Below are positions 1-64,000 of a stretch of DNA of 64,000 nucleotides, piece after piece (position 1 is the stretch's first letter; every line of letters starts with the position of its first letter). The notes beneath the pieces are model-generated. The model was not told where the DNA came from and ran no database searches. It saw only the letters and a list, made by a program, of their open reading frames with translations. The stretch comes from Gemmatimonadota bacterium. Lineage in GTDB: Bacteria > ARS69. Where the stretch lies: contig JASLLL010000012.1 in NCBI GenBank assembly GCA_030747075.1, positions 1 to 64,000 on the forward strand, written 5' to 3'. A program made the translations under genes and the position numbers.

Positions 1-1
1 C

Positions 2-226
2 TGCGACAACCACTACTACGTCTTTGTGCTCCTCCACGGAGTTGGCATGCGTCCAGACTTTCATATCGTTCCAAGTGACGTTGTGGCCGAGCATATTTCG
101 ACAAACCACAGGCAATGGCTAGCCCGCCCCAAAGCAGACGGCAGCCCTCGGAAGGACTCCTCGATGCGAAATTTCCGCGACTCCGATGGCAAATACAAAG
201 AAAGGTGGACCACTCTCAACCTGTGA
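2..226 (+). CDS. C-terminal fragment of a nuclease-like protein (5' end off window)
   Basis: An open frame enters from the left edge and ends at TGA 224-226. The visible 74 residues run through YVFVLLHGVG, PDFHIVPSDVVAEHI and NHRQWL to a tail FRDSDGKYKERWTTLNL. This arrangement (Y-V-F-V strand, IVPS motif, H-x-x-WL, then K-Y-x-x-R-W before the stop) recalls the C-terminus of a family of PD-(D/E)XK-type nuclease-like proteins often carrying misleading names in databases. That assignment is from memory of the family and the catalytic part is outside the window. GC is about 55% over the first 180 bases by hand count, well below the rest, and two of the window's roughly six ACGT sites lie here, so the fragment looks horizontally acquired. 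Confidence 0.55.
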   Translation, partial: CDNHYYVFVLLHGVGMRPDFHIVPSDVVAEHISTNHRQWLARPKADGSPRKDSSMRNFRDSDGKYKERWTTLNL

Positions 227-675
227 GACAGGCCGGACACGAGATCGCTGGGTGGCAGCGGAGCACGGTGCGTCTGCCGAGACCCATCTCCGCCAGAAAC
301 TCGGAAAGAGTAAGCGTCTTCAGGGGGCCGATAGACACGGGTTCTGTCTCGCGCATCGACCGGAGGCCCTTTGCGACCCCGCGACTTTCGTCGGTTGCGC
401 CGAATTGGCCCATCTCCATCTAGGGATCTGATATCGATTTCATGTAGTTCAGCGTGTCGGTTCCGGAGAAATTCAGCCATGCTTGATTGTTTCGGCAATT
501 CGATTTGCCAGGCTACATCCTTGCTCACCTCCAGGATATCTTTAGCCCTGTGATAGACGCGTCTTGCCCTAGCCTTCTTGTCGAGAAACTTCCGTCGCAG
601 GACCTCTCGACGGTCCCTTGCGGTCACCTTCCCCAACCTGGCAGCCAGTCTGTTTACCCTAACCCTAGATGCGCG
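227..675. other. Unassigned stretch between two gene fragments
   Basis: No gene is recognised in these 449 bases. The composition is intermediate (more A/T than the main window). The minus strand has an open, charged, helix-like segment around 430-640 (residues such as REVLRRKFLDKKARARRVY) and another short frame at 216-419, neither with a clear start or known motif. They could be decayed remnants of a gene split by frameshifts. Nothing here looks like a terminal inverted repeat or a transposase catalytic motif. Confidence 0.35.
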
Positions 676-1110
676 GAAGATGAGGCAGAGGCGCCACAGT
701 TCTGGCCCGTAGCCGCGGAGTCGCTCGTCAAGGCCACGCGCCGGACTCTTCACCGCATCATCAACGAGGACGCCGTCCCCCCGGGCGAAGTCGCCATTCT
801 CACGGTCCGCAAAGCCGAGGACAGCATTCTCGCCCGCGAAGACAAGCTCGGGAACTTCCGGCTTCACATCGGCAGGCCCGGCTCACGCAGGGCGCCCGGC
901 AAGATCTCGCTTTACTCCATCCACCGGTTCAAGGGGCTGGAGAGCGATGTCGTGTTGCTCATCGTGGAGGAACCCGGCCACAAACCCCGGCAGCCGCTGA
1001 ACGACCTGATCTACATCGGGGCTTCCCGCGCCCGCGGGCACCTGGTGCTGCTCGGCCGGGAAGCGACGCTCCACCGACTGCATGAGGGGGCGGCCGCCGG
1101 GGTGGAGTGA
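676..1110 (+). pseudogene. C-terminal remnant of a UvrD-family (superfamily 1) helicase
   Basis: The frame ends at TGA 1108-1110. It carries the last part of a UvrD-like helicase: a VPPGEVAILTVRK strand, then ISLYSIHRFKGLESDVVLLIV (motif V region) and LNDLIYIGASRARGHLVLLG (motif VI, with the arginine of the S/A-R-A pair). The Walker A and B motifs and the first several hundred residues are absent, and the frame upstream of about 676 does not resemble a helicase. I therefore call it a 5'-truncated gene, not an intact CDS. Homologous proteins often pair a NERD nuclease domain with this helicase. The nuclease-like tail at 2-226 suggests this edge is debris of an exchange or defence locus, which is inference. 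Confidence 0.7.
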
Positions 1111-1173
1111 CCGGCCACCCGGCCCCGGCCCGGGCGGGAGTCTGTCTGCAAGGTCGAAGCCGCCCCGACTCCC

Positions 1174-2643
1174 CTATTTCACCCGCACGATTCTCCCCGA
1201 GACACGACCGGTCGGCGCGTCCACGCGACACCAGTACACGCCCGCCGCCACGGACCTTCCCGACGCGTCCCGCCCGTCCCACGCGACCGATGGCGCCCCG
1301 GCCCCCGCCCGGAGCGTCCGCACGAGCCGCCCCGTCGTATCGAACAGGGAAACCGTCGCGGCCTCGCCCGGCAGGCTTGCGCGGAAGGAGATCGTCGTGG
1401 ACTCGCGGAACGGGTTGGGGGCGGCGCGAACCGTGGCACCCGCAACCACGCTCTCTCCCGCAGTCACCGCGCCGTCTCCCGCGACCCGTGCGATATACAG
1501 GTCGAACACCGGAAACAGCCCCGTCTGCCCCGTCACCCAGTATCCGCCGTCCGACGCCGCACCCAGCCCAAACGCGATGTCCCATGTGTTCCAACCCGGC
1601 GCGGAGTGAAACGCCAGCGTGCCCGTCGTGTCACCGCTCGCGTCCATCGCCACGAGATACGACTCCAGCCCGTCCGCTCCTGTCGTGGCCACGCCCGCCG
1701 CGAAGAACCCGCCCCCCGGTTCCGGGAGCACCGATGACGCCGCATCCGCCTGCGTCCCGCCCACGGTGCTCTCCCACAGCATCGCCCCCCATGCGTCGGT
1801 CCGGAAGACCCAGAACTGGTCGTCCCCCGCAACAGCGGACCTCGTCTGCCCCGCCACGACAAACCCGCCGCCGGACACTTCTCTCACGGAGAAGGTCAGA
1901 TCCCGGTCCGCGCCGCCGTAGGTCGCCTCCCATTCCGTCAGGCCGCCCGCATCCGTCTTGACGAGATACGCATCCACGCCGCCCGCCCCGTAGGAGGTGG
2001 TCGAACCGGTGAGAACGAACCCGCCGTCGGCCGTCGCGTGCCCCCACTGGCAGTCCTCGTCTCCCGCGCCTCCGTAGGTCGCCTCCCACAGCGTCGCGCC
2101 CGTTGAGTCCGTGCGCACGAGCAGGAAGTCGCTCCCGCCCGCACCGCTCGACTTCGTCTCCCCGGCGATCGCGAAACCGCCGTCGGGCAGCGTCTCAATC
2201 CACTGCCCGTCATCGTGCGCGGCGCCGCCCCAGGTCTTCTCCCACTCCACCGCGCCTCCCGCGTTCGCCCGCACGACATACACATCGCTCTCCCCCGCGC
2301 CGCTCGACTTCGTCTGCCCCGCCATCGCCACGCCGCCATCCGGCAGGACCACGAGCGCCCGGCAGTCCTCCCATCCGGGGCCGCCGTATGTCCGCGTCCA
2401 GAGCGTGTCGCCACCGGCGTCCGCGCGCACCAGGAGCGCGTCCGTGTCTCCGGCGTTCTGGGAGTACCCGCCGACGAAAACACCGCCGTCAGCCGCCTCC
2501 GCGATCGCGTGCCCTTCCTGCCATCCGGGAAGCGCGACGAGGTGTGTCCATGATGTGTCGGGGGGGGCTGCGAGAGCCGGCGGAGCGAGAAGCGCGGCGG
2601 CAGCCACCAGCGTGCCTGACGCGAGGAAACGGGTTCGCTGCAT
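1174..2643 (-). CDS. Secreted repeat (beta-propeller-like) protein with FlgD-type C-terminal domain
   Basis: This 489-residue protein starts at ATG 2643 with GGAGG seven bases upstream. A longer frame to 2892 lacks a comparable site and would bury the signal peptide. Residues 1-25 form a signal peptide ending in ALA. About seven repeats of roughly 50 residues follow, each with D-G-G-F/V, G-x-T-x-S and a W-x-x-T-x-G-G ending, the pattern of a delta-60/propeller-like surface protein. From about 405 to the end lies an APNPF motif, a GRLVRTL strand, AWDGRD and AAGVYWCRV, the FlgD-Ig-like module. The protein is probably exported and surface-held. Its ligand is unknown. Confidence 0.85.
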   Translation of the reverse strand: MQRTRFLASGTLVAAAALLAPPALAAPPDTSWTHLVALPGWQEGHAIAEAADGGVFVGGYSQNAGDTDALLVRADAGGDTLWTRTYGGPGWEDCRALVVLPDGGVAMAGQTKSSGAGESDVYVVRANAGGAVEWEKTWGGAAHDDGQWIETLPDGGFAIAGETKSSGAGGSDFLLVRTDSTGATLWEATYGGAGDEDCQWGHATADGGFVLTGSTTSYGAGGVDAYLVKTDAGGLTEWEATYGGADRDLTFSVREVSGGGFVVAGQTRSAVAGDDQFWVFRTDAWGAMLWESTVGGTQADAASSVLPEPGGGFFAAGVATTGADGLESYLVAMDASGDTTGTLAFHSAPGWNTWDIAFGLGAASDGGYWVTGQTGLFPVFDLYIARVAGDGAVTAGESVVAGATVRAAPNPFRESTTISFRASLPGEAATVSLFDTTGRLVRTLRAGAGAPSVAWDGRDASGRSVAAGVYWCRVDAPTGRVSGRIVRVK

Positions 2644-2843
2644 GAGAAGCCTCCGGGGGGAGAGGGAACGCGGCCAAGCGACCCCAGCATACCACCTCCC
2701 GCACAGCCGATTCCATCCTGCCGCCGAATCCCCCCTGCGGCACGCCCGGACCGCTTCCTCCCCCTCGCTTGCAAGCGGCACGCAGTGAGCGGTATCCTTG
2801 CCGTGGGTCCACGAGACCACAAGGCCGGCCCGGGAGGACATCG

Positions 2844-4589
2844 ATGATCCGCTTCCCCGCAAGGGCCGCCGTCTGTGCGTCCCTGTTTGCACTGGCTCCG
2901 CTCTCGCCCGCGTCGGCTTCCGCGCCGCCCGTCTTCAACCTGCAGCTTCCCAGCGACGCCACCGGAGGCGGCCACCTCGCCGTTCGCGTCACGCTTCCGC
3001 CTCCGTCGGTCGGGCCGCGCTACTCCGACGGAGCCCCGGTACTCGTACTGTCGCCGGGCGGCCATACCCCCGGGAGCCTCACCGGCGGAGACATCCTCGC
3101 CGGGAAGGGCTTCGCGGTACTCACCTTCCTCTATCCCGGCGGCTCCTCCGGCCCCTACTCCAGCGACGGCCTCTACGACTACCGGGGCGCGCTCTGCCGC
3201 ATGGCCCTCCGCGATGTCATCCTCTTCGCGGCCGGACTCAAGACGGACACGCTCTCCCGCACGATCCACGATGTCGCCCCCATACCCGTTCGCACCGGCA
3301 ACCTCGGGGTGCTCGGCTCCTCGAACGGTGGTCCCGCCACCATGGCCACCCTCGCGAACCACGGCTCGGAACTCCCCGCGCTGTCCTACTTTGTCGGGTG
3401 GGAGAATCCGACCGGCGGACAGACCGTATTGGGCGAGGTCGGCGTCAAGGACCGCGACTGCGACCCCTCCGTCGACGACGACGGCAACGGAGTCCCCGAC
3501 GACGACGGCGACAACCCCTACATCACCGCCTACTCGGACACTTCGATCACGATCGACTTCACGAACCTGGCCTTCGACCCCACCTACACGCGGACCGTCC
3601 TTGATCCCGGTGGCGTGCACGCGCCGTATCCGCACACCGGCGTGCTCTTCATCGACGGGAACGCGAACGGAACGCTGGACTTCGACCCGTCGGACCCCAC
3701 CTGCCTGGACCTCGACGGGAACGGCACGATCGACATCGGCGAGGACTACTTCTTCAATCCGCTCCCCGCGTACATCGGCGGGGCGCTCCAGTTGAATCAC
3801 TCCAATGAAGTGACGCGCGCGGCGGCAGCCTCCGGAGTCTACGGAGCCTCCTGGCCCTCCGTGGTCGCGGACACGGCTCAGGCGAGCGCCTACTGGGAGC
3901 TGCGCGACCCCACCACTCAGTACGATGAAGTCGCCGCAAACCAACCCGGACTCCGCTGCATGCTTGCGTTCGGGCAATCCGACCATGTGCAGGCGCATGC
4001 GGGCCATCCGCACATCCAGCAGGCGTACCACGGCCTCACGGCAAACGGTCTCTGGTGCCGCCTCAACCCGGACGAGGTCTACTACCGTGAGGTCGTCGCG
4101 GCTCCCGCTCTCCCGCCCACCGACACCGACGCCGGAATCGCGGTCGCCTGGCCCGACATGTGGGACTACTGCGAACCGTATGGGCTCTCCAGCAATGCGG
4201 GGGCGACCGCGGGCGTCATGGAGATGGCCGACCGCACCCGCTACGGCGTCTGGAGCACGAACCTCGACGCGCTGGTCACCAGCGCAACCGGTGTCGACGC
4301 CATTCCGCCCGCGACCGCCACCGCTCCCGCCGCGCGCCCGAACCCCTTCGGCACCGGAACCGCCATCTCCTGGACGATGCCCGACGCGGGGGGCGCATCG
4401 CTCTCGATCGTGGATGTGCGCGGGCGTGTCGTCCGCACGCTCACCACGGGCGCGATGTCAGCCGGTCCGCAGGAGACGCACTGGGACGGACTCGACAATG
4501 CTCACCGCCCCGTACCCGCCGGCGTCTACTTCGCGCGGATCGCCGCCCCCGGAATCCATCGCACGGTCAAGCTGACTCTCATCCGATAG
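2844..4589 (+). CDS. Secreted alpha/beta-hydrolase-like protein with calcium-binding-type loops and FlgD-type C-terminus
   Basis: The 581-residue product starts at ATG 2844 (GGGAGG upstream), which opens a signal peptide ending near ASASA. Residues about 60-200 look like an alpha/beta hydrolase: a VLVLSPGG strand, then GVLGSSNGG with the nucleophile-elbow serine near residue 160. Two Asp/Asn/Gly-rich stretches interrupt the fold (near 211, DDDGNGVPDDDGD, and near 271-300, DGNANGT and DLDGNGTIDIGED), resembling dockerin or EF-hand-type calcium loops. A histidine-rich segment around residue 390 could supply the catalytic His. Residues about 495-581 are the FlgD-Ig-like domain (ARPNPF, WDGL, GVYFARI). 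The substrate cannot be told. The stop overlaps the end of the convergent DUF998 gene by 11 nt. Confidence 0.8.
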   Translation: MIRFPARAAVCASLFALAPLSPASASAPPVFNLQLPSDATGGGHLAVRVTLPPPSVGPRYSDGAPVLVLSPGGHTPGSLTGGDILAGKGFAVLTFLYPGGSSGPYSSDGLYDYRGALCRMALRDVILFAAGLKTDTLSRTIHDVAPIPVRTGNLGVLGSSNGGPATMATLANHGSELPALSYFVGWENPTGGQTVLGEVGVKDRDCDPSVDDDGNGVPDDDGDNPYITAYSDTSITIDFTNLAFDPTYTRTVLDPGGVHAPYPHTGVLFIDGNANGTLDFDPSDPTCLDLDGNGTIDIGEDYFFNPLPAYIGGALQLNHSNEVTRAAAASGVYGASWPSVVADTAQASAYWELRDPTTQYDEVAANQPGLRCMLAFGQSDHVQAHAGHPHIQQAYHGLTANGLWCRLNPDEVYYREVVAAPALPPTDTDAGIAVAWPDMWDYCEPYGLSSNAGATAGVMEMADRTRYGVWSTNLDALVTSATGVDAIPPATATAPAARPNPFGTGTAISWTMPDAGGASLSIVDVRGRVVRTLTTGAMSAGPQETHWDGLDNAHRPVPAGVYFARIAAPGIHRTVKLTLIR

Positions 4590-5271
4590 GCGATGAAGCG
4601 TCGCCGCGGCGCAGCAGATGCGCCGCGGCGACCAGAACAAAAACTACGGCAAGCGCAATCACGCACCACTCCAGCAGGGCCAGCAATCGAACTGCGGGCC
4701 GGGCGGACAGCGCATACGCTTCGAAGTTCCGGTGGGCGGCCATGAGTTCGCCTTTGGGGGCAGCGGTGAATGCGACGCATCCCGCGAGAAGCGCACGGCT
4801 CGCCCGATACAGGCCGCGTGCCCGGCCTTCCCGGGCCGCCTGACGAAACACCGCCGTGTAGAGAATCGCCCCAATCATCAGGAGCCAGAAGTACACCGCC
4901 GCCAGAACCAGATGCGGACCGCCGCCGCCCATGGGGACCAGGCCGACCAGCACGCCCGCAAGGCCCGTGGCCACGCCGACTCCCCCCGCCACGAACCCCC
5001 ACCGCGTCCCTTCGAGTCGCGCCACTCTCCACAGAATCGGCGTGAACAGGAGCCCGGCAAGTGCCACGCCTCCATTGAACGCCCACGCGCGCGGCGACGA
5101 CTCCGCCCAGCCGAGTTCGGATACGAAGTGGTTTGCGAACGAGTACCCCGGTCCACCCGGCCGATCATAGGCCAAGACTGCGGCAGCCATGCCTCCCGCC
5201 ATGCACGCGACTCCCGCAATCCCCGCCACGGCGACACACCTCTCCCGCCGCGCACCGTGCAAATCCCGCAT
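4579..5271 (-). CDS. DUF998-family integral membrane protein
   Basis: This 230-residue protein starts at ATG 5271 behind a GGGGGGAGAG site. A frame to 5337 exists, but the extra residues are not membrane-like and have no ribosome site. It has about six hydrophobic segments, with the family signature SFANHFVSELGW in the first extracytoplasmic loop and TAAPKGELMAAHRNFE before the last helices. DUF998 proteins are small polytopic proteins of unknown function. It is convergent with the hydrolase gene (11-nt overlap) and divergent from mdh. Confidence 0.8.
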   Translation of the reverse strand: MRDLHGARRERCVAVAGIAGVACMAGGMAAAVLAYDRPGGPGYSFANHFVSELGWAESSPRAWAFNGGVALAGLLFTPILWRVARLEGTRWGFVAGGVGVATGLAGVLVGLVPMGGGGPHLVLAAVYFWLLMIGAILYTAVFRQAAREGRARGLYRASRALLAGCVAFTAAPKGELMAAHRNFEAYALSARPAVRLLALLEWCVIALAVVFVLVAAAHLLRRGDASSPIG

Positions 5272-5377
5272 CCTGCTCTCCCCCCGTTTGTCCGCGGCTG
5301 CGCAGGATATTGCACGAGTGCCTGCATCGTCACGCACTCTTCGCCGCCCGCACGAAGCCGCGCCCTCCCTGAATCCC

Positions 5378-5405
5378 TTGATCTTCCGGTGTTCACCCGT
5401 ACATT
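5378..5405 (+). promoter_or_regulatory. Candidate sigma-70-type promoter for mdh
   Basis: TTGATC at 5378-5383 and TACATT at 5400-5405 are separated by 16 bases in the 228-nt divergent intergenic region, about 90 bases upstream of the mdh start. The match is fair, not perfect. Confidence 0.4.
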
Positions 5406-5499
5406 GGGCCAGTATTGGGGCGCGTCCGTCCCGGTGGCTCTCCCGGCGCGGAGGGCTTCCTGCCCGGACTCAATCGTGGGTTGAACAAGGAGTGCTGAA

Positions 5500-6522
5500 G
5501 TGCTTGAGAAGATCGGTGTCATCGGCGCAGGAAACATCGGGGGGGTGCTCGTTCAGGAACTCGTCCGGCGGCAGCTGGCCCGGACGATCGCGGTCACCGA
5601 CCCGGCTCCCTTTGTGAATCCGGAGGATCCGCCCGAGAGGCAGGAGACCACGAAGAGCCAGTCCGTCGCGCGCGGCAAAGCGCTCGACATCCTGGAAGGA
5701 ACTCCGCTCCTCGGCAGCGATGTCTCCGTGGAGGCCGGACGCGACTACGATGTGCTCGCGGGCTGCGACATGGTGATCAACACAGCGGGCGTGCCGAGAA
5801 AAGCGCGTCCGGACGGGACCTTCCCGTCGAGAGATGAACTCCTGTCGATCAACCTGAAGGTGACCGGCCAGGTGGCGAAGGGGATCGCGGACCACTGCCC
5901 GGATGCCACCGTCATCTCCGTCGCCAATCCGCTGGACGCCATCGTCTACACGCTCTATCGGAAGCTCGGCATCCCGAAGAACCGCCTGATCGGCATGGCG
6001 GGGGTGCTCGACTCGGCGCGCTACCGCTGGTTCGTCGCGCAAGCCGCCGGTGTGAGCGTGGACAATGTGGAGGCTCTCGTTCTCGGCGGCCACGGCGACA
6101 CCATGGTTCCGGTGCGCAGCTGCTGTCGGATCGCCGGAATGCCCGTCGAGAAGTTCGTGTCCTCCGAAGACCTCGACGCCATCGAAGCCCGCACCCGAAA
6201 GGCGGGCGGAGAGGTCGTCGGTCTCCTGGGATTCGGCTCGGCGTTTGTGTCGCCCGCGCTGTCAGCGCTGGAGATGGCGGAGTCCATCCTCTTCGATCGC
6301 AAGAAGGTCACCCCGGTCTGCACCCTCCTCGAAGGGGAGTACGGCGTAGACGGTCTCTTTGTCGGCGTGCCTGCGGTGCTTGGTGCCAATGGCGTGGAGA
6401 AGATCATCGAGACCGAACTCACCGATGCCGAGGCCACCGCACTGGAGGCTTCCGTGTCCGCAGTGCGGACCACCTGCGAGGATGTCGACCGCATGCTGGA
6501 GCAGGCCACCCCGGCTGGCTGA
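5500..6522 (+). CDS. mdh: Malate dehydrogenase (NAD-dependent, LDH-like type)
   Basis: The enzyme interconverts malate and oxaloacetate in the cytoplasm (TCA cycle). It starts at GTG 5500 with AAGGAGTG at the right distance. Residues 8-15 are the Rossmann loop (GAGNIGG). GVPRKARPDG and SRDELL carry the mobile-loop arginines, NPLDAIVY is the conserved Asn region, GVLDSARYRWF has the Asp/Arg pair, and the catalytic His is near residue 198 in GGHGDTMVP. At 340 residues it is about 20-25 longer than usual. The extra residues (about 35-58, containing NPEDPPERQETTKSQS) follow the second beta strand, next to the acidic residue that should bind the NAD ribose. The gene stands alone with its own leader. 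Confidence 0.93.
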   Translation: MLEKIGVIGAGNIGGVLVQELVRRQLARTIAVTDPAPFVNPEDPPERQETTKSQSVARGKALDILEGTPLLGSDVSVEAGRDYDVLAGCDMVINTAGVPRKARPDGTFPSRDELLSINLKVTGQVAKGIADHCPDATVISVANPLDAIVYTLYRKLGIPKNRLIGMAGVLDSARYRWFVAQAAGVSVDNVEALVLGGHGDTMVPVRSCCRIAGMPVEKFVSSEDLDAIEARTRKAGGEVVGLLGFGSAFVSPALSALEMAESILFDRKKVTPVCTLLEGEYGVDGLFVGVPAVLGANGVEKIIETELTDAEATALEASVSAVRTTCEDVDRMLEQATPAG

Positions 6523-6533
6523 TCCGCGGATCA
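6520..6533. repeat. Perfect 14-bp palindrome at the mdh stop
   Basis: TGATCCGCGGATCA is its own reverse complement and contains the mdh stop codon. It could form a small hairpin or simply be chance. The stronger hairpin just downstream is listed separately. Confidence 0.4.
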
Positions 6534-6542
6534 CTTGCGACT

Positions 6543-6569
6543 GCCCCGATCCGTGAGTAGGGTCGGGGC
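6543..6569 (+). terminator. Stem-loop downstream of mdh
   Basis: GCCCCGATCC (6543-6552) pairs with GGGTCGGGGC (6560-6569) around a 7-nt loop, with one G-T wobble. No T-run follows, so it may terminate poorly or only stabilise the 3' end. Confidence 0.45.
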
Positions 6570-6629
6570 ACGCCGTTGGCAGAGCGCCTCCCCCACGGTT
6601 TCCACCATTCCCCGGGGAGGTCCCGCACC

Positions 6630-7094
6630 ATGCTCGCCATCTCGGAAGTACGACGCCTCTTGAGCGTTGACACCCCACTGGAACTCCCGCCCGCCCGCCA
6701 CCGCGCGTCCCGGCTCCTGCATGCCCTTCGCGCCGCGATCCGCCCGGCTGCGCAGCATCTGCACACACTCCGCGTGGGCGCCACGCGCTTCTGGGCCCTG
6801 GGAGAAGAGGCACCCCATGCGCTGGAGTTGTTTGAGCGACATGTGCTGGAACACGCCCTGGGCCTGCCCACCCGGCCTGTCCCCGAGTTCGGCGCGTCAC
6901 GCCGGCAACCCGGAGTTCATCGAGAAAAGTGCAAGGTTCACAGAGAAACACCGCTCCCTGTCAAGAAAGGAGACCTTGCCGTCCGCTACTTTTCTCATCC
7001 CGGTGCCAGCTTGCACAAGAAACCCCTGAAACCACCGCAACTACCTGCAGTTTCACCTGTTGCGGGCTCCTTGGTTCGCAAGAAAGCGTCATAA
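6630..7094 (+). CDS. Hypothetical protein, 154 residues
   Basis: The frame starts at ATG 6630 with GGGGAGG nine bases upstream and ends at TAA. The first roughly 85 codons have the strong GC third-position bias of neighbouring genes and encode an amphipathic, helix-rich segment (LHALRAAIRPAAQHLHTLR, ALELFERHVLEHALGL). The remaining third is more A/T-rich and basic without recognisable motifs. No family is recognised. The real product may be shorter, with the end shifted by a frame change, or the region may be decaying. Confidence 0.4.
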   Translation: MLAISEVRRLLSVDTPLELPPARHRASRLLHALRAAIRPAAQHLHTLRVGATRFWALGEEAPHALELFERHVLEHALGLPTRPVPEFGASRRQPGVHREKCKVHRETPLPVKKGDLAVRYFSHPGASLHKKPLKPPQLPAVSPVAGSLVRKKAS

Positions 7095-7401
7095 ACAATG
7101 CTCCCACCCTTCCAGCATTCGACGCTGAAATCATACCGCCTCCCTCGCAAACACCGTCAGCTCAGAACCTTAGCTTTTTACTGTCACCACCCCCTCTTCC
7201 CTGCTATAATATTCAACGAGTGGGAGAACTCTCGCCGGAGGTCTCCTTCTGTGGCGTGGAGTATCTGATCGGATCTCTGCGCAGTGCCCGGCCGAAGTGA
7301 ACTCGGCTTGGCGGATCAAGCCCGGCACCGCACGGCCCGATTCAGAGGAAGGGCCGGGGAAGCCGATCGCTTTTCGAGTGGGTGGCAATGTGGAGGCTGG
7401 T
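7095..7401. other. Non-coding leader region before the NHL-repeat gene
   Basis: These 307 bases contain no supported gene. The first half is unusually A/T-rich for the window and holds a consensus-like TATAAT (listed separately). The second half, about 7230-7401, has weak open frames but no ribosome site until GGAGG at 7392-7396, so it is probably untranslated leader. Confidence 0.45.
7182..7210 (+). promoter_or_regulatory. Candidate promoter with consensus -10 box
   Basis: TATAAT at 7205-7210 is a perfect -10 hexamer in an otherwise GC-rich genome. The best-placed -35 is TGTCAC at 7182-7187 (17-nt spacer), which is weak. It would give a leader of about 185 nt for the NHL-repeat gene. Confidence 0.4.
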
Positions 7402-8415: not shown

Positions 8416-8418
8416 GCC

Positions 8419-8440
8419 ACGCCGCTCACGGCGTTTCTTC
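8419..8440 (+). terminator. Intrinsic terminator of the NHL-repeat gene
   Basis: ACGCCG (8419-8424), loop CTCA, CGGCGT (8429-8434), followed by TTCTTC. It sits four bases past the TAG of the NHL gene, a good rho-independent layout. Confidence 0.6.
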
Positions 8441-8606
8441 CGCCACACCCGGCCAGACTGCCTGCTCACCCTTCTCCCGCCCCGTCCGGTCAAGCACTCC
8501 GCTCCCTCTGCCGATACCCCGCTGGGAGGCTGTTTCTCCCGCCATCACTTCCGCATGGGGTCCGGGACTCCCGGACTCATCGCACGCTTCCGTCTTGAGG
8601 GGATCG

Positions 8607-9523
<917 letters not shown>

Positions 9524-9527
<4 letters not shown>

Positions 9528-11835: not shown

Positions 11836-11920
11836 CGGGACCTCTCATCATGACGCGCACGGGTGGGCAACCGGTATCGGCATCATCATACCGTGATCGC
11901 CCCGCACCGGGAAGAGGCCT

Positions 11921-12583: not shown

Positions 12584-12684
12584 GGCAAGGGATGGTCAGT
12601 GCGAAGAGTCTCGTTCTCTCCTCTGAATCGGCCCGGGGGAGGACACCCTTGACGGGGGATCCGTGCGTGGAAAAGCGAGCTTGC

Positions 12685-13698: not shown

Positions 13699-13818
13699 AG
13701 CAGCCGTCCTTCCTCGGGGAGGGGCGAGGGAAGCTCCACTCTAGCACAACTGGGGAATACCGACAGCGAGCGCAGGCGTGGGCGGCCGGAAGCAATCGGC
13801 CGACCGTCCCCTCCCCCG

Positions 13819-20665: not shown

Positions 20666-20675
20666 ATTCGCCTTG

Positions 20676-47662: not shown

Positions 47663-47666
47663 CCCT

Positions 47667-49073: not shown

Positions 49074-49157
49074 AGCCCACCGGCACGCACGGTCTCCTCC
49101 CCCTTGCACCCGTGCCGATGTGTTCCTAGTGTGGAGCGTCCCCCGGGGGGGAGCACC

Positions 49158-49496: not shown

Positions 49497-49568
49497 AGTC
49501 CGGCCGGGGACATGGTAGAATGACGCCTCCCCTCCCCCCCGCTCACCTCTTCTGCGGAGAGCCGCACC

Positions 49569-52160: not shown

Positions 52161-52175
52161 CGCTGGAGGAGCACT

Positions 52176-54254: not shown

Positions 54255-54255
54255 G

Positions 54256-56106: not shown

Positions 56107-56166
56107 GCCGCCTCCCTTGTTCTACGGCCGTCACCGAGTATCGTGGCGTGTGAAAGGAGGAGCGTC

Positions 56167-58410: not shown

Positions 58411-58413
58411 CAA

Positions 58414-58442
58414 CGCGCCGCCAGCGCACGAAGAGAGCCACC
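58414..58442. repeat. Left 29-bp direct repeat bounding the vapBC cassette
   Basis: This copy matches 59183-59211 at 28 of 29 positions (C instead of T at 58422). It begins four bases after the synthetase stop and ends eight bases before the toxin stop. The core reads AGCGCACGAAGAGAGCCACC. The same bases in the right copy encode the last residues of the RNA methyltransferase. Here the stop triplet is changed and no gene uses it. Confidence 0.85.
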
Positions 58443-58449
58443 TGCCGCC

Positions 58450-58863
58450 TCAGACCTGTCTGGTCCGCAGCTTGGCTTTCCTGGCCGCCTTCAACTGCCG
58501 TGAGTCTGACGAGACGAACAGCTCCGTGTCCCACTGGAGAGCGCAGGCCACATGGAGAGCGTCCATTGCCCGAACTGGATTCGTCTCCAGAATCCGGATC
58601 GCATCCGCCACAACGGCAGGAAGCAGGTTCACAATCGTGGCGTCGGCCACTTCCAGCGACAACCGGGCCTTTGCGTCCCGGTACTGGCTGCGCGACAGAG
58701 AGCCTTCGCGCAGACGGCGATTCAGCGCGGAGACAATCTCCGGAGGACTGATGACCGACAGCGCCAGCGCGGAGGCCTTTCCGCACAACCGCTCCACCTT
58801 GTCGCTCCCCTTCTCATCCACATAACGCTTTGCGAAGGCCGAGGAGTCAAAGAAGATCTTCAT
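58450..58863 (-). CDS. vapC: VapC-type PIN-domain toxin
   Basis: This 137-residue protein starts at ATG 58863. PIN nuclease acids are in place: MKIFFDSSAFAKRYVDE (first Asp and a Glu), SPPEIVSALNRR (Glu), NPVRAMDALHVACAL (Asp) and LFVSSDSRQLKAA (Asp). VapC toxins cleave tRNA or rRNA with Mg2+ when freed from antitoxin. The start overlaps the antitoxin gene by 17 nt, so synthesis is coupled. The cassette is bounded by 29-bp direct repeats. Confidence 0.88.
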   Translation of the reverse strand: MKIFFDSSAFAKRYVDEKGSDKVERLCGKASALALSVISPPEIVSALNRRLREGSLSRSQYRDAKARLSLEVADATIVNLLPAVVADAIRILETNPVRAMDALHVACALQWDTELFVSSDSRQLKAARKAKLRTRQV

Positions 58864-59083
58864 CGGTACGCTCTCCCAGAATCGCTGCCGACAGCGCCCC
58901 TCCCCTGACCGCGAGGCGCAGGGCAGCCTGCTTCCAGGCCGGCAGGGAGTCGGAAGAGCGAACGGGAGACACCTCGGCGATGGGCTTGCCGTGCCGGATG
59001 ACAAGGAACACCTCTCCGCGCTCTACATCGGAGAAGAGACCCGACGCGTTCTTTCGAAACTCCGTGAATGTCACGGTTTTCAT
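58847..59083 (-). CDS. Phd/YefM-type antitoxin (VapB partner)
   Basis: The 78-residue protein starts at ATG 59083 with AAGGAGG upstream. The N-terminal half MKTVTFTEFRKNASGLFSDVERGE and VFLVIRHGKPIAEVSPV is the Phd/YefM DNA-binding fold. The C-terminal half (WKQAALRLAVRGGALSAAILGERTDEDLL) should wrap the PIN toxin. It is the first gene of the operon, and three TGTACA palindromes just upstream look like its autoregulatory operator. Confidence 0.88.
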   Translation of the reverse strand: MKTVTFTEFRKNASGLFSDVERGEVFLVIRHGKPIAEVSPVRSSDSLPAWKQAALRLAVRGGALSAAILGERTDEDLL

Positions 59084-59096
59084 ATGCCCCTCCTTG

Positions 59097-59124
59097 TGTA
59101 CAGGAGTGTACATCCTTCTGTACA
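59097..59124 (-). promoter_or_regulatory. Triple TGTACA operator of the vapBC operon
   Basis: TGTACA occurs at 59097-59102, 59107-59112 and 59119-59124, spaced 10 and 12 bases, about one helical turn. The set begins 14 bases upstream of the antitoxin ATG. Each hexamer is palindromic, and the outer two form a larger imperfect dyad around the middle one. This fits cooperative binding of antitoxin dimers or toxin-antitoxin complexes. Confidence 0.6.
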
Positions 59125-59182
59125 TATCGGCAAGGGGTCTTCCGGCTCTCTCTTTCGCCAGGCGGCCGAGTGCAATGAACGG

Positions 59183-59211
59183 CGCGCCGCTAGCGCACGA
59201 AGAGAGCCACC
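59183..59211. repeat. Right 29-bp direct repeat, within the 3' end of the RNA methyltransferase gene
   Basis: This is the second copy of the repeat at 58414-58442. It includes the methyltransferase stop (TAG at 59192-59190 on the minus strand) and its last six codons (VALFVR). Having a functional gene end as one copy marks it as the original site, and the left copy as the duplicate. Confidence 0.85.
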
Positions 59212-60464
59212 GTCTCCACATGTGCGGTCACCGGGAAGAGATCGATCGCGCGCAGGCTCTCCAGCCGCCAGCCCGCGTCGATCAGCGCTTTGGTGTCGCG
59301 GGCGCCGGTCGCGGGGTCGCAGGACACGGAGACGATCCGGCGCGGGGCACGCTTTATCAGCGCGGCGCGGGTCTCGCGATCCAGTCCGGCTCTCGGGGGG
59401 TCGATCACAATGGTCTCGCTCGGGGAGGACGGCTCCGAAGTGAGCGTCCGCGCCGCCGTCTCCGACCGCGTCTCCGCACGCACGCCCGCACGACGCAGGT
59501 TCCCCCGGAGGAACCGGAGCGCACGCCGGTCCGTGTCCGTCGCCACCACGCGATCAAATCCCTGCCCGCACAGCACCGAAAGCAGCCCGACCCCCGCGTA
59601 CAGATCCATGAGGACTCCATCGCGATCCTCTCCGAGAGCGCGCGCCACCTCCCGGGCCAGTTGCTCCGCTCCCTGGAGACTTCCCTGAAAGAACGAGGTG
59701 GCGTCGGCACGAAACTCCCGCCCCCCCACGCGGAACCGAAGTTCGCGGTCACCACCCAGCGGGCGCCGATCGGCGAGAACGCCACGCACGGCGGGCGAGC
59801 GCTCCATGCCCTTCGTCAACCGCTCCAGACGGCGGCGGGCCTTGTCGGACGCGCCCTGCGGGGACTCGAAGAGCACCACCCCCCCGTCCCGCGAGTCCAT
59901 GCGGAGCGAAACACGGTGCCACGGTGGCGCAAGCCGGGCCCACGCGAAGAGGTCTTCGCCAGCGGGCATCTCCAGCAGCGGGCACGCGTCCAGCGGGACG
60001 ACTTCGTGCGTGCCGCGCCGGAAGAGTCCGGGGTGCCCCATCGGGTCATAGGTGAGTCGGATCCGGTTGCGCGTCCCCGTCTCCTGCGCGAGCGGGTCCG
60101 GCCCTTCGAGCAGTTCCCCGACATCCATCTGTGCGATACGCCGGTATGCGTCGCCGATGATCGATCGCTTCATCTCCGCCTGAAGAGACGGTTCCGCGTG
60201 CTGGAAGTCGCAGCCTCCGCAAGCGGACGCGTGCGGGCAGGGGGCTTCGCGCCGCCCGGCGTGGGGTTCGACGATCTCCACCGCGACGGCCTCGGCGAGC
60301 GACTTCCCCTCCCGCGTGACACGGGCGCGAACGCGTTCGCCCGGAAGAGCCCCGCTGACCAGCACGACCCTCCCGCTGACGCGCGCAAGGCACGCACCAC
60401 CAGGCACGGCGTGGCCGACGGTGAGGTCCGTGAGATCCGGGCTGGTCGCGGGAGTCGATTCCAT
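59190..60464 (-). CDS. RumA/TrmA-type 23S rRNA (uracil-5-)-methyltransferase
   Basis: The product has 424 residues from ATG 60464. No good ribosome site is visible, so the start is uncertain. Residues about 10-65 are a TRAM RNA-binding domain. A cysteine cluster CPHASACGGCDF with a later DACPL matches the [4Fe-4S] site of RumA/RlmD. The SAM domain has LMDLYAGVGLLSVLCG and VVATDTDRRAL, and the catalytic Cys is in VSVSCDPATGARD. It should methylate uridine C5 in 23S rRNA. RlmC, RlmD and RlmCD cannot be told apart by eye. Its 3' end is duplicated on the far side of the vapBC cassette. Confidence 0.87.
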   Translation of the reverse strand: MESTPATSPDLTDLTVGHAVPGGACLARVSGRVVLVSGALPGERVRARVTREGKSLAEAVAVEIVEPHAGRREAPCPHASACGGCDFQHAEPSLQAEMKRSIIGDAYRRIAQMDVGELLEGPDPLAQETGTRNRIRLTYDPMGHPGLFRRGTHEVVPLDACPLLEMPAGEDLFAWARLAPPWHRVSLRMDSRDGGVVLFESPQGASDKARRRLERLTKGMERSPAVRGVLADRRPLGGDRELRFRVGGREFRADATSFFQGSLQGAEQLAREVARALGEDRDGVLMDLYAGVGLLSVLCGQGFDRVVATDTDRRALRFLRGNLRRAGVRAETRSETAARTLTSEPSSPSETIVIDPPRAGLDRETRAALIKRAPRRIVSVSCDPATGARDTKALIDAGWRLESLRAIDLFPVTAHVETVALFVR

Positions 60465-60578
60465 AAGGTGGGTCAGGATACCCGAACGGTGCGCCGCGTG
60501 GGTGAAAACCTGTGGTCTCCGATTCGGAAAATGTGCCACGATCCCCGGACCGGCACCCCGGCCAACTGGAGGTATTCC

Positions 60579-61562
60579 GTGAACTCCCCCCCGACCGGCA
60601 CTTCCAACCTCATGGGCTACCGGCGCGTCGGCGCGTCGGGTCTGCGCGTAAGCGAGATTGCGCTCGGCAGCTGGCTCACCTATGGCGCTTCCGTGGCCGA
60701 CTCCACCGCGCAGGCGTGCATTCGGGAAGCCATCGAATCGGGTGTGATCTTTCTCGACACGGCGGATGTCTACAACCACGGCGCCGCCGAGGAACTTCTG
60801 GGGAGGATGCTCGCGGACTACCAGCGCAGCGACCTGGTGCTGGCGACGAAGGCGTTCTTCCCGATGTCGGAGAATCCCAACGACCGCGGACTCTCTCGAA
60901 AGCACCTCTTCGAATCGGTCCATGCCAGCCTTCGCAGGCTTCGCACCGACTACATCGACCTCTACCAGTGTCACCGCTTCGACCCGGATACGCCCGTCTC
61001 GGAGACGGTGCGCGCCATGGACGACCTGGTTACCTCAGGGAAAATCCTCTACTGGGGGGTGTCGCTCTGGTCCGCTGCGCAGATCGCCGAAGCCGTGGAG
61101 ATTGCACGACACACCGGCGCCGCGCCGCCCGTCTCCAACCAGCCGCCCTATAATATGCTGCAGCGATCCATCGAGGAGGATGTTCTCCCGCTCTGCCGCA
61201 GAGAGGGGGTCGGGCAGGTGGTGTACTGCCCGCTCTCGCAGGGCCTCCTGACGGGGAAGTATGCGGGCGGGAAACTTCCCGAAGGGTCGCGCGCGGCCGA
61301 CGAGAAGGCCGGGCAGTTCCTTCGCCCGAGGATGACTCCCGCAAACCATGAGCAGGTGGATCGCCTCGCGAAGCTCGCGGCGGAGGCCGGGCTGTCGCTG
61401 GTGCAGTTGGCGCTGGCGTGGGTTCTGAGGGACGACTGCGTCGCGGCCGCGATCATCGGCGCGACGACACCGGAGCAGGTGCGCGAAAATGTGGCCGCCT
61501 CCGGAATCCGGCTCGACGAGGACTTCCTCTACCGCGTGGAAATGGTGCTCTCCGCAAGCTGA
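60579..61562 (+). CDS. Aldo/keto reductase (potassium-channel beta-subunit-like)
   Basis: The 327-residue enzyme starts at GTG 60579 with GGAGG at 6-nt spacing. The tetrad is visible: Asp in FLDTADVYNHG (near 58) with Tyr five residues later, Lys in VLATKAFF (near 91) and His in LYQCHRFD (near 131). GSWLTYG near the start and NQPPYNMLQR, CPLSQGLLTGKY and the NADPH-binding AIIGATTPEQVREN near the end place it with the Kv-beta-like AKRs. It would reduce aldehydes or ketones with NADPH. It is divergent from the RNA methyltransferase gene. Confidence 0.92.
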   Translation: MNSPPTGTSNLMGYRRVGASGLRVSEIALGSWLTYGASVADSTAQACIREAIESGVIFLDTADVYNHGAAEELLGRMLADYQRSDLVLATKAFFPMSENPNDRGLSRKHLFESVHASLRRLRTDYIDLYQCHRFDPDTPVSETVRAMDDLVTSGKILYWGVSLWSAAQIAEAVEIARHTGAAPPVSNQPPYNMLQRSIEEDVLPLCRREGVGQVVYCPLSQGLLTGKYAGGKLPEGSRAADEKAGQFLRPRMTPANHEQVDRLAKLAAEAGLSLVQLALAWVLRDDCVAAAIIGATTPEQVRENVAASGIRLDEDFLYRVEMVLSAS

Positions 61563-61759
61563 CCGCCACCCGCGCCTCTCCCCCACGCCACGATGTCCGC
61601 GGAACCGACACCGGCACGCGCCTTGCTCTGCACCCGGCTCCCGCCTCCCGCAAGGGCGGAGAACGCCGTGCACGCCACGCTCCGGGCTCCGCTCCCAACC
61701 GGAGGTGACGCACCCGGCGCAACCCGTGTTGCCACTTCTTCCCGGTCGAGGAGTCGCCC

Positions 61760-62110
61760 ATGATGTTCCCGCAGGACCGCCGACCTCCCCCTCCACGCCC
61801 CCCGCGTCCCGGCCACTTGTTCCGGCCCGGGCCGGGTCCCGACGGGCCGACCACACTGGACCGCCTCTGCCGAGTCCGGCGTCGGGCTCTTCGGGACCTG
61901 GGCGTTCGCCCTCCGAAACGCCCCCCGGGAGGGGACCCGCGCGCGCTCATTCTCCATGCCGCCACGCTCGACCGCTGGATCGCCCGCAATCTGGACCTTG
62001 CAGGCGGGCGACGCATCCCTCCCTGGGAGGACACCGGAGAACCATGGATCGAGGAAGAAGCCGCGGAGAACGAGGAGGAAGGAGAAGAAGATTGCCCGTG
62101 GGAATGGTGA
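61760..62110 (+). CDS. Small protein with Pro-rich N-terminus and acidic tail
   Basis: This 116-residue frame begins ATGATG at 61760 behind GAGGAG and its TGA overlaps the start of the next gene by 7 nt. The first 30 residues are proline- and arginine-rich, the middle is helical (LDRLCRVRRRALRDLGV, ALILHAATLDRWIARNL), and the last 25 are strongly acidic (EEEAAENEEEGEED). No family is recognised. Coupling to the glycosylase-like gene and the middle segment's neighbouring-gene-like codon use support a real gene. Confidence 0.6.
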   Translation: MMFPQDRRPPPPRPPRPGHLFRPGPGPDGPTTLDRLCRVRRRALRDLGVRPPKRPPGGDPRALILHAATLDRWIARNLDLAGGRRIPPWEDTGEPWIEEEAAENEEEGEEDCPWEW

Positions 62111-63069
62111 AGCGCGGCCGGGTCCTGGCCCGGCTGGAGTCGGACATCGCATTCTGTGAGCGGTGCTACGGCCCGGAAAAGACACTTCCCGTCCGCTTCG
62201 AGCGACCCGCCGAACAGCCGGAACTTCTCATCCTGGGGGAACGCCCGCCCAGGCGGCTTCTGGAAAGGGACGGCCGCCTCGGAACGGGAGGCCCGGACCC
62301 GGGAACGCGCTTCCTCCGAAACCTCCTGGAAGATGCGCGGATCCCCCGGACGCGAATCCTGATGGCGTCCGCCATGCTGTGCCGACCGGCTTCCCGGGAA
62401 CTGGAGGCCGTGGTTCCGCCTGCCGCTTGTGTTCGTGCCTGCGCGTCCCATGTCCGTCGGTTGGTGGAGGCAGCCCGCCCGCCGCTCATCGTCGTCCTCG
62501 GGCACCGGGCGGTGCGGTCGGTCAAGGCGTGCTTCCCGAAGGAGGAGTCGCTCCGCAAGCTCCGCTTCCCGGCCATGGTGGGTCAGGCGGTTCCCTTAGG
62601 GTCGGCGGCGGTCGTCCCGCTCTACCAGACGACCACCCGCGCCCGCGTCACCCGCCCGGCAGAAGCGCAGAAGCGGGACTGGAAGTCGATCGGCACGCTC
62701 TATCACGCGCTTGCGGGAAGGCGCAGCGGCCTTGAAAAGGCGTGGACTTCCCACGCCCGCAGACGCACCTTCGTCCGGAACTCAACCCGGGAGGAAGGGA
62801 ATGAAACTCAAGCCGCTGCCGGTCATCGTGCTGGGGCTGGGTCCAATCGGACGCGCCGTCGCGAAAGAGATCGCGGGACAACCGGACATGGAACTCATGG
62901 GAGCCGTGGACCCGGCTCCGAAGTTCGCGGGGAAGAGCGTCGGCGAACTGATCCGGGACAAGAGCCGGGCGCGTCTTCGCGTTCACAAGAACCTGCCCGC
63001 ACAGATCAAGGCGCTCGGTCGCCGCCGCCCGACGCTGGCGGTTCACATGGCCACATCCCGCTTTCCTGA
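62104..63069 (+). CDS. Divergent uracil-DNA-glycosylase-superfamily protein
   Basis: The frame starts at ATG 62104, overlapping the upstream stop. Residues 15-200 follow the family 4/5 UDG order: an N-terminal CERCY, LLILGERPPRR where active enzymes have GEAPG, TRFLRNLLEDARI, RILMASAMLCRPA with E-x-x-x-V before a Cys, and PPLIVVLGHRAVRSV. The altered GEAPG segment leaves activity doubtful. The domain ends near 62716, but the frame stays open to 63069 and would overlap the next gene by 269 nt. That last third is Arg/Gly-rich and looks like read-through. The true end may be lost by a frameshift near 62700, which would give a stop at 62733-62735. Confidence 0.65.
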   Translation: MVKRGRVLARLESDIAFCERCYGPEKTLPVRFERPAEQPELLILGERPPRRLLERDGRLGTGGPDPGTRFLRNLLEDARIPRTRILMASAMLCRPASRELEAVVPPAACVRACASHVRRLVEAARPPLIVVLGHRAVRSVKACFPKEESLRKLRFPAMVGQAVPLGSAAVVPLYQTTTRARVTRPAEAQKRDWKSIGTLYHALAGRRSGLEKAWTSHARRRTFVRNSTREEGNETQAAAGHRAGAGSNRTRRRERDRGTTGHGTHGSRGPGSEVRGEERRRTDPGQEPGASSRSQEPARTDQGARSPPPDAGGSHGHIPLS

Positions 63070-63796
63070 AGCGTATCCGCAGGTCCTGGAACTGGTGAAG
63101 CAGGGCGTCAGCGTGGTCTCCACCTGCGAAGAAATGGTGGCCGCACCGGATCGATGGCCGAAGGAGGCGCATGCGCTCGATCGTGCGTGCCGAAAGGCGG
63201 GGGTCTCTGTCCTCTCCGCGGGGGTCAACCCCGGCTTCGTGATGGACTTCCTCCCCGAAGTCCTGTCATCGGTCTGCGTGAGATTGGATTCGGTCCGGAT
63301 CACGCGCCATGTGGACACCGCAAAGCGCCGACGCGCCCTCCAGTTGAAGACCGGGGCCGGCATCACGGTGGAGGAGTTCCGCGCGCGAAAGCGGGCGGGC
63401 ACGATCGGCCATGTGGGTTGCCTGGATTCGCTGCTCTTTGTGCTGCGCCACTTGCGCCTTCCTCCGCAGACCATGAAGGCGGACGCGGAACTCCTGCGCC
63501 CGATCATCGCCGGGAAGGCCGTGGGAACCGGGCGCAACCGCATCCCGAAGGGACGCGTGGTCGGCGTTCACCAGACCGTGCGCGGCAGAGACTCCGCCAC
63601 GGGGAAGATCGTGGCGACGCTGGACCTCAAGATGGCGTACGGGTTGGAAGATCCGCACGACGCCATCTTCCTGAAGGGAGATCCACCGGTTGATCTGCGG
63701 ATCGACGGCGGAATCCAGGGAGACCGCGCTACCGTGGGAACGGTGCTGTCGACCATCCGGGACGCCGCCTATGCTCCCCCGGGGTTTGGGGGGTAG
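62801..63796 (+). CDS. NAD(P)-dependent amino-acid-type dehydrogenase (DapB-like N-terminus)
   Basis: The product has 331 residues from ATG 62801 (GGGAGGAAG upstream). The Rossmann motif is VIVLGLGPIGRAVAKEI with MELMGAVDPAPKFAGKSVGEL, as in dihydrodipicolinate reductase. The middle VVSTCEEM and SAGVNPGFVMDFLP and the C-terminal half resemble 2,4-diaminopentanoate-dehydrogenase-like proteins, not DapB itself. The substrate is uncertain. It follows the glycosylase-like gene on the same strand and is convergent with the gene at the window edge. Confidence 0.82.
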   Translation: MKLKPLPVIVLGLGPIGRAVAKEIAGQPDMELMGAVDPAPKFAGKSVGELIRDKSRARLRVHKNLPAQIKALGRRRPTLAVHMATSRFPEAYPQVLELVKQGVSVVSTCEEMVAAPDRWPKEAHALDRACRKAGVSVLSAGVNPGFVMDFLPEVLSSVCVRLDSVRITRHVDTAKRRRALQLKTGAGITVEEFRARKRAGTIGHVGCLDSLLFVLRHLRLPPQTMKADAELLRPIIAGKAVGTGRNRIPKGRVVGVHQTVRGRDSATGKIVATLDLKMAYGLEDPHDAIFLKGDPPVDLRIDGGIQGDRATVGTVLSTIRDAAYAPPGFGG

Positions 63797-63813
63797 CGCA
63801 CGGATCCGAGGCT

Positions 63814-63835
63814 GGGGAGGCGGCGCCGCCTCCCC
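63814..63835. terminator. Perfect 22-bp palindrome between convergent genes
   Basis: An 11-bp arm starting GGGGAGGCGGC meets its exact complement with no loop, 17 nt after the dehydrogenase stop. A second imperfect dyad (GCCC..CCCGATCGGG..GGGC) follows at about 63840-63859. They probably form a bidirectional terminator, although no T-run is present. Confidence 0.5.
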
Positions 63836-63898
63836 GCCGGGCCCACCCGATCGGGCGGGCGAAGCCGCAATGGAGCCCGGCGGGAAGCGTGGTTCCGG

Positions 63899-64000
63899 CT
63901 AGTCGACCCGGAAGCGGAATCCCTGGCGCGTCGGGCCGCTCACTTCCGCGCCCTCCTGCGCCTCCAGCGAGAGGTTCCAGTCTCCGGGAGGGAAACGGCC
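63899..64000 (-). CDS. C-terminal end of an unidentified protein (5' end off window)
   Basis: The minus strand is open from the right edge to TAG at 63901-63899, giving 33 residues with a beta-like pattern (GDWNLSLEAQEGAEV, GFRFRVD). This fits the end of an Ig-like or carbohydrate-binding beta sandwich, but nothing firmer can be said from so little. Confidence 0.5.
   Translation of the reverse strand, partial: GRFPPGDWNLSLEAQEGAEVSGPTRQGFRFRVD

What the first reader, a model, noticed from the sequence alone, without database searches (positions are those of the whole stretch)
1..64000. Near-absence of ACGT with systematic NAT-GTN codon pairs
Scanning the plus strand by eye (ACGT is palindromic, so this covers both strands) I found only about six copies: 18, 78, 23395, 26330, 52489 and 54063. 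At about 65% GC roughly 200 are expected. In coding DNA, Asp-Val, Tyr-Val, His-Val and Asn-Val are nearly always GAT/TAT/CAT/AAT followed by GTN, although the C-ending codons dominate elsewhere. ATGT and ACAT, the products of deaminating a methylated C in ACGT, are common. Either an ACGT-specific cytosine methyltransferase has eroded the site or restriction selects against it. Two of the six copies are in the lower-GC first 81 bases, so the motif may also flag recent imports.
Basis: partly seen in the sequence, partly recalled or inferred. Interest (0 to 1): 0.82.

Follow-up and report, generated by a model that had tools for sequence, protein, structure and literature searches.

The report
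Bacterial genome purged of word ACGT
This uncultured bacterium has lost almost every copy of the four-letter DNA word ACGT through selection, probably because a restriction enzyme cuts there; the effect is known elsewhere, but here it is unusually strong and the expected protecting enzyme was not found.

Summary
It is genome-wide: 40 against about 1,300 in a 464 kb sample (Kr 0.044). Four other genera of the family are not depleted (O/E 0.97-1.39), so it arose in this lineage. Coding (31 vs 1,739) and intergenic DNA (6 vs 135) are both depleted. Apart from scattered copies, ACGT is kept in rRNA genes, two parS-like sites and segments that look like imports. Decay by deamination of methylated C is not supported: where relatives have Thr ACG before T and Thr is kept (41 sites), this genome has ACC 30, ACT 6, ACA 5, ACG 0; a decay model predicts at least half ACA. 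The pattern fits selection against the site (S about 5), i.e. restriction-site avoidance; AATT, CTCGAG and GCCGGC are low too. The puzzle: five DNA-methyltransferase families gave no match in this "100% complete" assembly, so the enzyme is recently lost, unbinned, unrecognised, or the agent is something else. H. pylori is a published precedent for strong ACGT avoidance, and a MAG of another phylum (Ca. Tariuqbacter arcticus) shows the same purge. Known kind, extreme case.

The parts
18..21 (.). ACGT copy 1, in a low-GC gene fragment at the contig start
78..81 (.). ACGT copy 2, same fragment
23395..23398 (.). ACGT copy 3, inside called gene 22086-23507 (-)
26330..26333 (.). ACGT copy 4, inside called gene 26220-26684 (-)
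52489..52492 (.). ACGT copy 5, inside called gene 52176-54251 (+)
54063..54066 (.). ACGT copy 6, inside called gene 52176-54251 (+)
2..226 (+). 3' end of a gene cut by the contig start (74 aa plus stop), GC 0.52-0.63 per 100 bases; 51% identical over 61 aa to a translated stretch of Synechocystis plasmid pSYSA; no Pfam, PADLOC or NCBIfam match; probable import
227..64000 (.). rest of the window, with 4 ACGT: the word (and AATT) is purged from genes and spacers on both strands

Best explanation
ACGT is removed from this genome by natural selection against the site in DNA. Most likely an ACGT-specific Type II restriction activity is, or was until very recently, resident in the lineage: now and then a site escapes protective methylation and is cut, so each ACGT carries a small cost (S = 2Ns about 5), and nearly all copies not tied to a function have been replaced by ordinary synonymous alternatives. 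Shown: genome-wide, confined to this genome among the five held of its family, in coding and intergenic DNA, and better explained by selection than by C-to-T decay. Inferred: that the agent is a restriction enzyme. Not found: its genes; lost a moment ago, on an unbinned plasmid or island, or of a family not tested.
For: Window 6 vs 196; 464 kb sample 40 vs ~1,300, Kr 0.044 against a published cut-off of 0.78 (PMC4687349). Whole-genome GACGTG 44 vs 1,589 for the reversed word; the four other genomes of the family have about twice as many GACGTG as control and ACGT O/E 0.97-1.39. Coding 31 vs 1,739, intergenic 6 vs 135. Ortholog test: ACG|T with Thr kept, own ACC 30, ACT 6, ACA 5, ACG 0 of 41; NAC|GT with residue kept, NAT 81 of 81. 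Selection model beats decay model by 313 to 690 log units on the six baselines tried. Other palindromes are low here and less so or not in relatives: AATT 0.16, CTCGAG 0.32, GCCGGC 0.38. Function-held copies persist: 8 in 16S (8.1 expected), 4 in 23S, all four at positions that are ACGT in E. coli too, and two parS-like sites next to parA-parB. Published precedent: H. pylori ACGT O/E 0.11 and 0.05 with HpyCH4IV (PMC3849833, passages).
Against: No match in the own genome (61 contigs, completeness 100) for PF00145, PF01555, PF02384, PF02086 or PF07669. G001, not depleted, has all five; G002-G004, not depleted either and less complete or more contaminated, lack them too except two weak PF02384 matches, so lacking these families is common in this family and does not go with the purge. 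The published ACGT methyltransferase M.Hpy99XI is m5C (PMC3936762), a kind that PF00145 should find. Only 38 ACGT in 692 kb outside the ACGT-bearing stretches is about 2% of expectation, so an old loss cannot be the whole story. CTAG is low in relatives too and AAGCTT as low in G001, so not every low palindrome is specific to this lineage. The selection model is not a perfect fit: ACT before T is commoner than predicted from five of six baselines.
Confidence: 0.7

Rival explanations
1. An ACGT-specific m5C methyltransferase without adequate repair makes ACGT decay to ATGT/ACAT by deamination.
For: NAC|GTN is replaced by NAT|GTN, as decay would also give; ATGT and ACAT are numerous.
Against: NAT is the only synonymous alternative there, so that is forced. 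At Thr|T the decay model predicts ACA 0.51-0.66, observed 0.14. At 41 aligned sites with Thr kept, ACA is 5 and ACC 30; Met, the other decay product, occurs once among 68 positions. ATGT/ACAT no higher than in relatives. No PF00145 gene.
Confidence: 0.04
2. A selective agent other than restriction: a DNA-binding protein whose core is ACGT, another sequence-specific nuclease, or an RNA-level cleavage of ACGU.
For: No match for five methyltransferase families. parS-like sites with a CACGTG core are present, so at least one protein of this cell probably binds an ACGT-containing site.
Against: Intergenic DNA is depleted almost as strongly (0.045 with the two parS-like sites included), which an RNA agent would not predict well, though spacers can be transcribed. 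Other palindromes are avoided as well. ParB needs a 16-base site (recalled). Whether the undepleted relatives have parS was not checked.
Confidence: 0.18
3. The restriction acts outside this cell: DNA of this lineage is exchanged through or with cells that cut ACGT, so that its own genome needs no restriction-modification genes.
For: No match for five methyltransferase families in the assembly although several palindromes are avoided. Avoidance in prokaryotic viruses and plasmids is the subject of PMC6286503 and PMC10359461 (titles and beginnings of abstracts).
Against: A whole 2.67 Mb chromosome would have to pass often enough for selection on each site; nothing seen supports this.
Confidence: 0.06

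Closest known systems
Avoidance of Type II restriction sites in prokaryotic genomes (Rusinov et al. 2015, PMC4687349; abstract, passages and sections 9, 12, 19 seen)
   Same: Short palindrome, Kr far below 0.78, several palindromes at once; the paper also reports avoidance without the R-M genes as traces of lost systems.
   Different: Kr 0.044; only 38 sites in 692 kb outside the ACGT-bearing stretches; no methyltransferase of five families matched in the assembly, whereas the paper finds underrepresentation in only 0.7% of orthodox site-genome pairs in genomes without R-M systems.
ACGT avoidance in Helicobacter pylori with HpyCH4IV / Hpy99XI (PMC3849833, PMC3936762; passages seen)
   Same: Same word; O/E on base composition 0.11 and 0.05 there, about 0.03 here (40 vs 1,481, my arithmetic).
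   Different: H. pylori J99 has the m5C methyltransferase M.Hpy99XI; here none is found.
Ca. Tariuqbacter arcticus bin.685 (L092 = G022)
   Same: ACGT 3 vs 65 in 84 kb, Kr 0.059, NAC|GT 1 vs NAT|GT 180, no PF00145 match.
   Different: GC 0.405 in the sample, another phylum (Electryoneota in NCBI taxonomy), and a different set of other avoided words (GGCC, CATG, GATC, CGCG).

Membership tests
Restriction-site (palindrome) avoidance | Kr of the site at or below 0.78 | tested here: met
   0.043 window, 0.044 on 464 kb; G001 0.93, G004 0.99
Restriction-site (palindrome) avoidance | Selection against the site rather than directed mutation | tested here: met
Restriction-site (palindrome) avoidance | DNA-level: coding and intergenic both depleted | tested here: met
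   31 vs 1,739 and 6 vs 135
Restriction-site (palindrome) avoidance | Other palindromes of Type II kind avoided in the same genome | tested here: met
   AATT, CTCGAG, GCCGGC
Genome with a resident ACGT-specific Type II R-M system (HpyCH4IV/Hpy99XI kind) | Encodes a DNA methyltransferase of a known family | tested here: not met
   no match for PF00145, PF01555, PF02384, PF02086, PF07669 in the assembly G000; PF05063 uninformative because no control genome rang; plasmids and unbinned DNA not seen
Genome with a resident ACGT-specific Type II R-M system (HpyCH4IV/Hpy99XI kind) | ACGT is methylated / cut in this cell | not testable with these tools
   no long reads or enzyme data
m5C deamination decay | Excess of ACA|T and ATG|T where ACG|T was | tested here: not met
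   ACA 5, Met 1, ACC 30 among 68 aligned positions

The most novel reading that the evidence does not exclude
A bacterial genome almost completely purged of a tetranucleotide although it carries no restriction-modification system: the purge is imposed by an agent of a kind not yet described (a nuclease protected by something other than the known methyltransferase families, or restriction met during DNA exchange), and the same agent acted in a second phylum (Ca. Tariuqbacter).
Probability: 0.12. Interest if true: 0.75.

Novelty: new member of a known kind. Interest (0 to 1): 0.45.

Why it matters
It is a very clean case of restriction-site avoidance: one word about 98% purged in one genome, while the four other genera held of its family are untouched, so the pull of selection on each site can be measured against relatives. 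The missing word also works as a tracer: stretches that still contain ACGT stand out as constrained or newly arrived. And it poses a testable question: what protects or cuts ACGT in a genome where five known DNA-methyltransferase families gave no match.

Tried and rejected
Deamination by an m5C methyltransferase: tested by codon context, by orthologs and by a rate model; rejected as main driver. A first, smaller sample suggested that the non-ACG split before T equals that of G001 (19:79:19); with a larger sample G001 is 34:300:36 against own 169:813:211, so the match is not exact: ACT and ACA are both commoner here, ACA by no more than in the other three contexts (ratio of shares to G001 1.5 before T, 1.6, 2.3 and 1.8 before A, C, G; my arithmetic).

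A chance or composition effect: rejected by Markov, Kr and synonymous shuffles. General CpG or NCGN depletion: rejected. A family-wide habit: rejected for the four other genomes held.

Searching a cause: five methyltransferase families negative in the own genome, one (PF05063) uninformative, and PF01555 at E up to 10 gave only an 11.8-bit, 21-residue piece. Cas1 gave no match in any of the five genomes and the repeat scan of the own sample showed no CRISPR-like array that I could recognise (one GC-rich coding-type repeat in L012), so phages of this host could not be sought through spacers. The genes at L019 2-862 and 951-2060 and the fragment at window 2-223 matched no Pfam, PADLOC or NCBIfam family; L019 2-862 also found nothing in plasmids or viral contigs. 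My first gene list used longest ORFs and was wrong in many places; it was replaced by the codon-model calls. On rereading I found that one search had printed only 14 of 15 classes at ACG|T; one search prints all (the missing one is Trp, ACG is 0). Paper searches: searches returned nothing; some searches gave listings; I make no claim about what is in print beyond those searches. Against the filed draft, confidence in the best explanation was lowered from 0.72 to 0.70 and the non-restriction rival raised from 0.16 to 0.18, because three undepleted relatives also lack most of the methyltransferase families.

Full report
WHAT WAS CHECKED. The window has six ACGT at exactly the stated places; 196 are expected from the trinucleotides. 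Shuffling synonymous codons inside the 46 genes called in the window gives 176.6 +/- 8.8 and never fewer than 155 in 200 shuffles, against 4 observed. The other fifteen NCGN words lie at 0.78-1.41 of expectation, so this is not a CpG effect.

THE WHOLE GENOME. The window is G000:C12:1-64000 of a 2.67 Mb assembly in 61 contigs (completeness 100, contamination 0.96). Over the whole assembly GACGTG occurs 44 times on both strands against 1,589 for the reversed word, and CACGTG 16 times against 365. In 464 kb (window plus 20 stretches) there are 40 ACGT against about 1,300, O/E 0.031; Kr is 0.044. Of these 40, 13 lie in one rRNA operon end and 9 at the start of contig C10. One search added 20 stretches, chosen partly because they held known ACGT words or were small contigs, so they are not a random sample; two of them read N throughout and were left out, giving 709.5 kb. 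There, 38 copies remain in 692 kb outside six ACGT-bearing stretches: coding 31 vs 1,739 expected, intergenic 6 vs 135 (one site falls on a boundary).

RELATIVES. The holdings have four other genomes of this phylum, all of the same family and other genera. All four have about twice as many GACGTG as control, and ACGT O/E is 0.97, 1.39, 1.12 and 1.03 (the G002 and G003 samples are only 27 and 22 kb); larger samples of G001 and G004 give 1.01 and 1.11. The purge therefore most likely arose in the lineage of this genome. By the protein of window 5500-6519 (malate dehydrogenase by my reading) the best match among 33 is JALGZR01 (MAG M3-44_Bin_119, 78% identical), which appears to be G004, since size and all four counts agree. 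In the 33 genomes reached through those loci (two of them evidently G004 and G002 again), one, Ca. Tariuqbacter arcticus, is as low (27 vs 928), the next is 212 vs 1,741.

SELECTION OR DECAY. If a methylated C were simply deaminated, ACGT would become ATGT or ACAT. Three tests speak against it. First, ATGT/ACAT are at 1.26 of expectation here and 1.17-1.27 in the undepleted relatives. Second, Thr before a T-starting codon: ACA 169, ACC 813, ACG 11, ACT 211 outside the ACGT-bearing stretches. A model in which only ACG-to-ACA is sped up until ACG falls to the observed 0.9% predicts ACA at 0.51-0.66; a model that only penalises ACG predicts 0.06-0.22; observed 0.14. The selection model is better by 313 to 690 log units over six baselines; it is not a perfect fit, ACT being commoner than predicted from five of the six. 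Third, in 69 best-hit ortholog pairs (mean identity 57%), relatives' ACG before T with our next codon also starting with T: 68 positions, Thr kept at 41, of which ACC 30, ACT 6, ACA 5, ACG 0; Met once. In the other contexts ACG is kept in 51 of 137 (before C), 32 of 83 (before A) and 47 of 168 (before G). NAC|GT with the residue kept becomes NAT in 81 of 81, against 31 of 82, 27 of 139 and 17 of 126 before GC, GA, GG. The strength, from NAC|GT 19 vs NAT|GT 1,620 with 6,424 vs 2,202 as control, is S = 5.5; from Thr 4.5-5.0. That is weak selection on each site, far from lethality. A caveat: once selection has emptied the site, deamination would leave little trace, so m5C methylation itself is not excluded.

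WHERE ACGT SURVIVES. 16S rRNA keeps 8 (8.1 expected; E. coli 5) and 23S keeps 4 (7.2 expected; E. coli 10), all four at positions also ACGT in E. coli. Two copies are the cores of two TTTCACGTGAAAC sites just upstream of parA-parB, with rsmG, mnmG, mnmE and yidC beside them (gene names by my reading of the translations; the likeness to parS is recalled). Four further stretches, each at or near a contig end (L019 1-3557, L055 886-3839, L060 674-3922, L074 11251-12657), have many ACGT: the nine genes called there hold 43 against 60 by codon shuffle. In L019 most copies lie before 1700; its large gene 2347-4356 holds one. One protein in L055 has a Peptidase_C25 domain. They look acquired or highly variable; no donor was identified. 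The window's first 226 bases are the end of a lower-GC gene with two ACGT, 51% identical over 61 residues to a stretch of plasmid pSYSA. About 36 further copies are scattered singly.

THE AGENT. Other palindromes are also low here: AATT 0.16 (relatives 0.52-0.91), CTCGAG 0.32 (0.56-1.12), GCCGGC 0.38 (0.73-1.16); CTAG is low in relatives too and AAGCTT as low in G001. A set of avoided palindromes is the mark of Type II restriction. Rusinov et al. found avoidance in 47.9% of orthodox Type II site-genome pairs, in 3.9% of controls and in 0.7% of orthodox site-genome pairs in genomes without R-M systems, and regard avoidance without genes as, in many cases, traces of lost systems (PMC4687349, sections 12 and 19). 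H. pylori shows ACGT O/E 0.11 and 0.05 with HpyCH4IV (PMC3849833, table passage; multilocus and whole-genome columns as I read them) and J99 methylates ACGT as m5C by M.Hpy99XI (PMC3936762, passages). Here, however, five DNA-methyltransferase families give no match in the own genome, while control genomes ring (10, 11, 13, 4 and 11 of 14) and G001 has all five. G002, G003 and G004, which are not depleted, also lack them apart from weak PF02384 matches in G003 and G004, so their absence is not peculiar to the purged genome. Since only about 2% of the expected sites are present, the agent is either still acting or was lost very recently (inference). The likeliest readings are that the R-M genes sit on an unbinned plasmid or island or were just lost; less likely, that the protecting enzyme belongs to a family I did not test, or that the agent is not a restriction enzyme.

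A PARALLEL. In 84 kb of Ca. Tariuqbacter arcticus ACGT is 3 against 65, Kr 0.059, NAC|GT 1 vs NAT|GT 180 with control 321 vs 414, and GGCC, CATG, GATC and CGCG are low as well; it too has no PF00145 match. Other methyltransferase families were not searched there, and the completeness of that assembly was not told. The paper that describes the genus has no mention of restriction in its main text (PMC10439189, word search). Near-total loss of ACGT is therefore not unique to this genome.

VERDICT. A true and very strong observation, of a known kind (restriction-site avoidance), with one unexplained feature: no methyltransferase of the five families tested.

Noticed in passing
L071 6354-6405 (G000 contig C11): Two parS-like sites upstream of parA-parB in an oriC-type neighbourhood (rsmG, mnmG, mnmE, yidC by my reading); they keep CACGTG although it is rare in the genome.
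   Followed up: yes
L092 and L151-L166 (Ca. Tariuqbacter arcticus MAG): ACGT almost absent, and GGCC, CATG, GATC, CGCG, CTAG strongly avoided; no C5 methyltransferase match.
   Followed up: partly
L055 2308-4338, L060 505-3642, L074 11888-12634: ACGT-rich stretches near contig ends, carrying C25-peptidase-like secreted proteins (Pfam match tested only for the L055 one) and, in L060 and L074, look-alike small secreted proteins; the L074 stretch begins about 1.2 kb past a tmRNA gene.
   Followed up: partly
L055 582 and 4754, L074 10127: A repeated stretch, recognisable by similar spurious translations, lies near these ACGT-rich segments; its extent was not measured.
   Followed up: no
L019 2-862: Truncated gene at the start of contig C10, ACGT-bearing, with an 'AIEVKY' motif reminiscent of nuclease folds (recalled); no family match.
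   Followed up: partly
G000, 709.5 kb sample: AATT is also avoided at codon level: AAT before T is 13 of 504 Asn codons, against 1,197 of 3,783 before other bases.
   Followed up: partly
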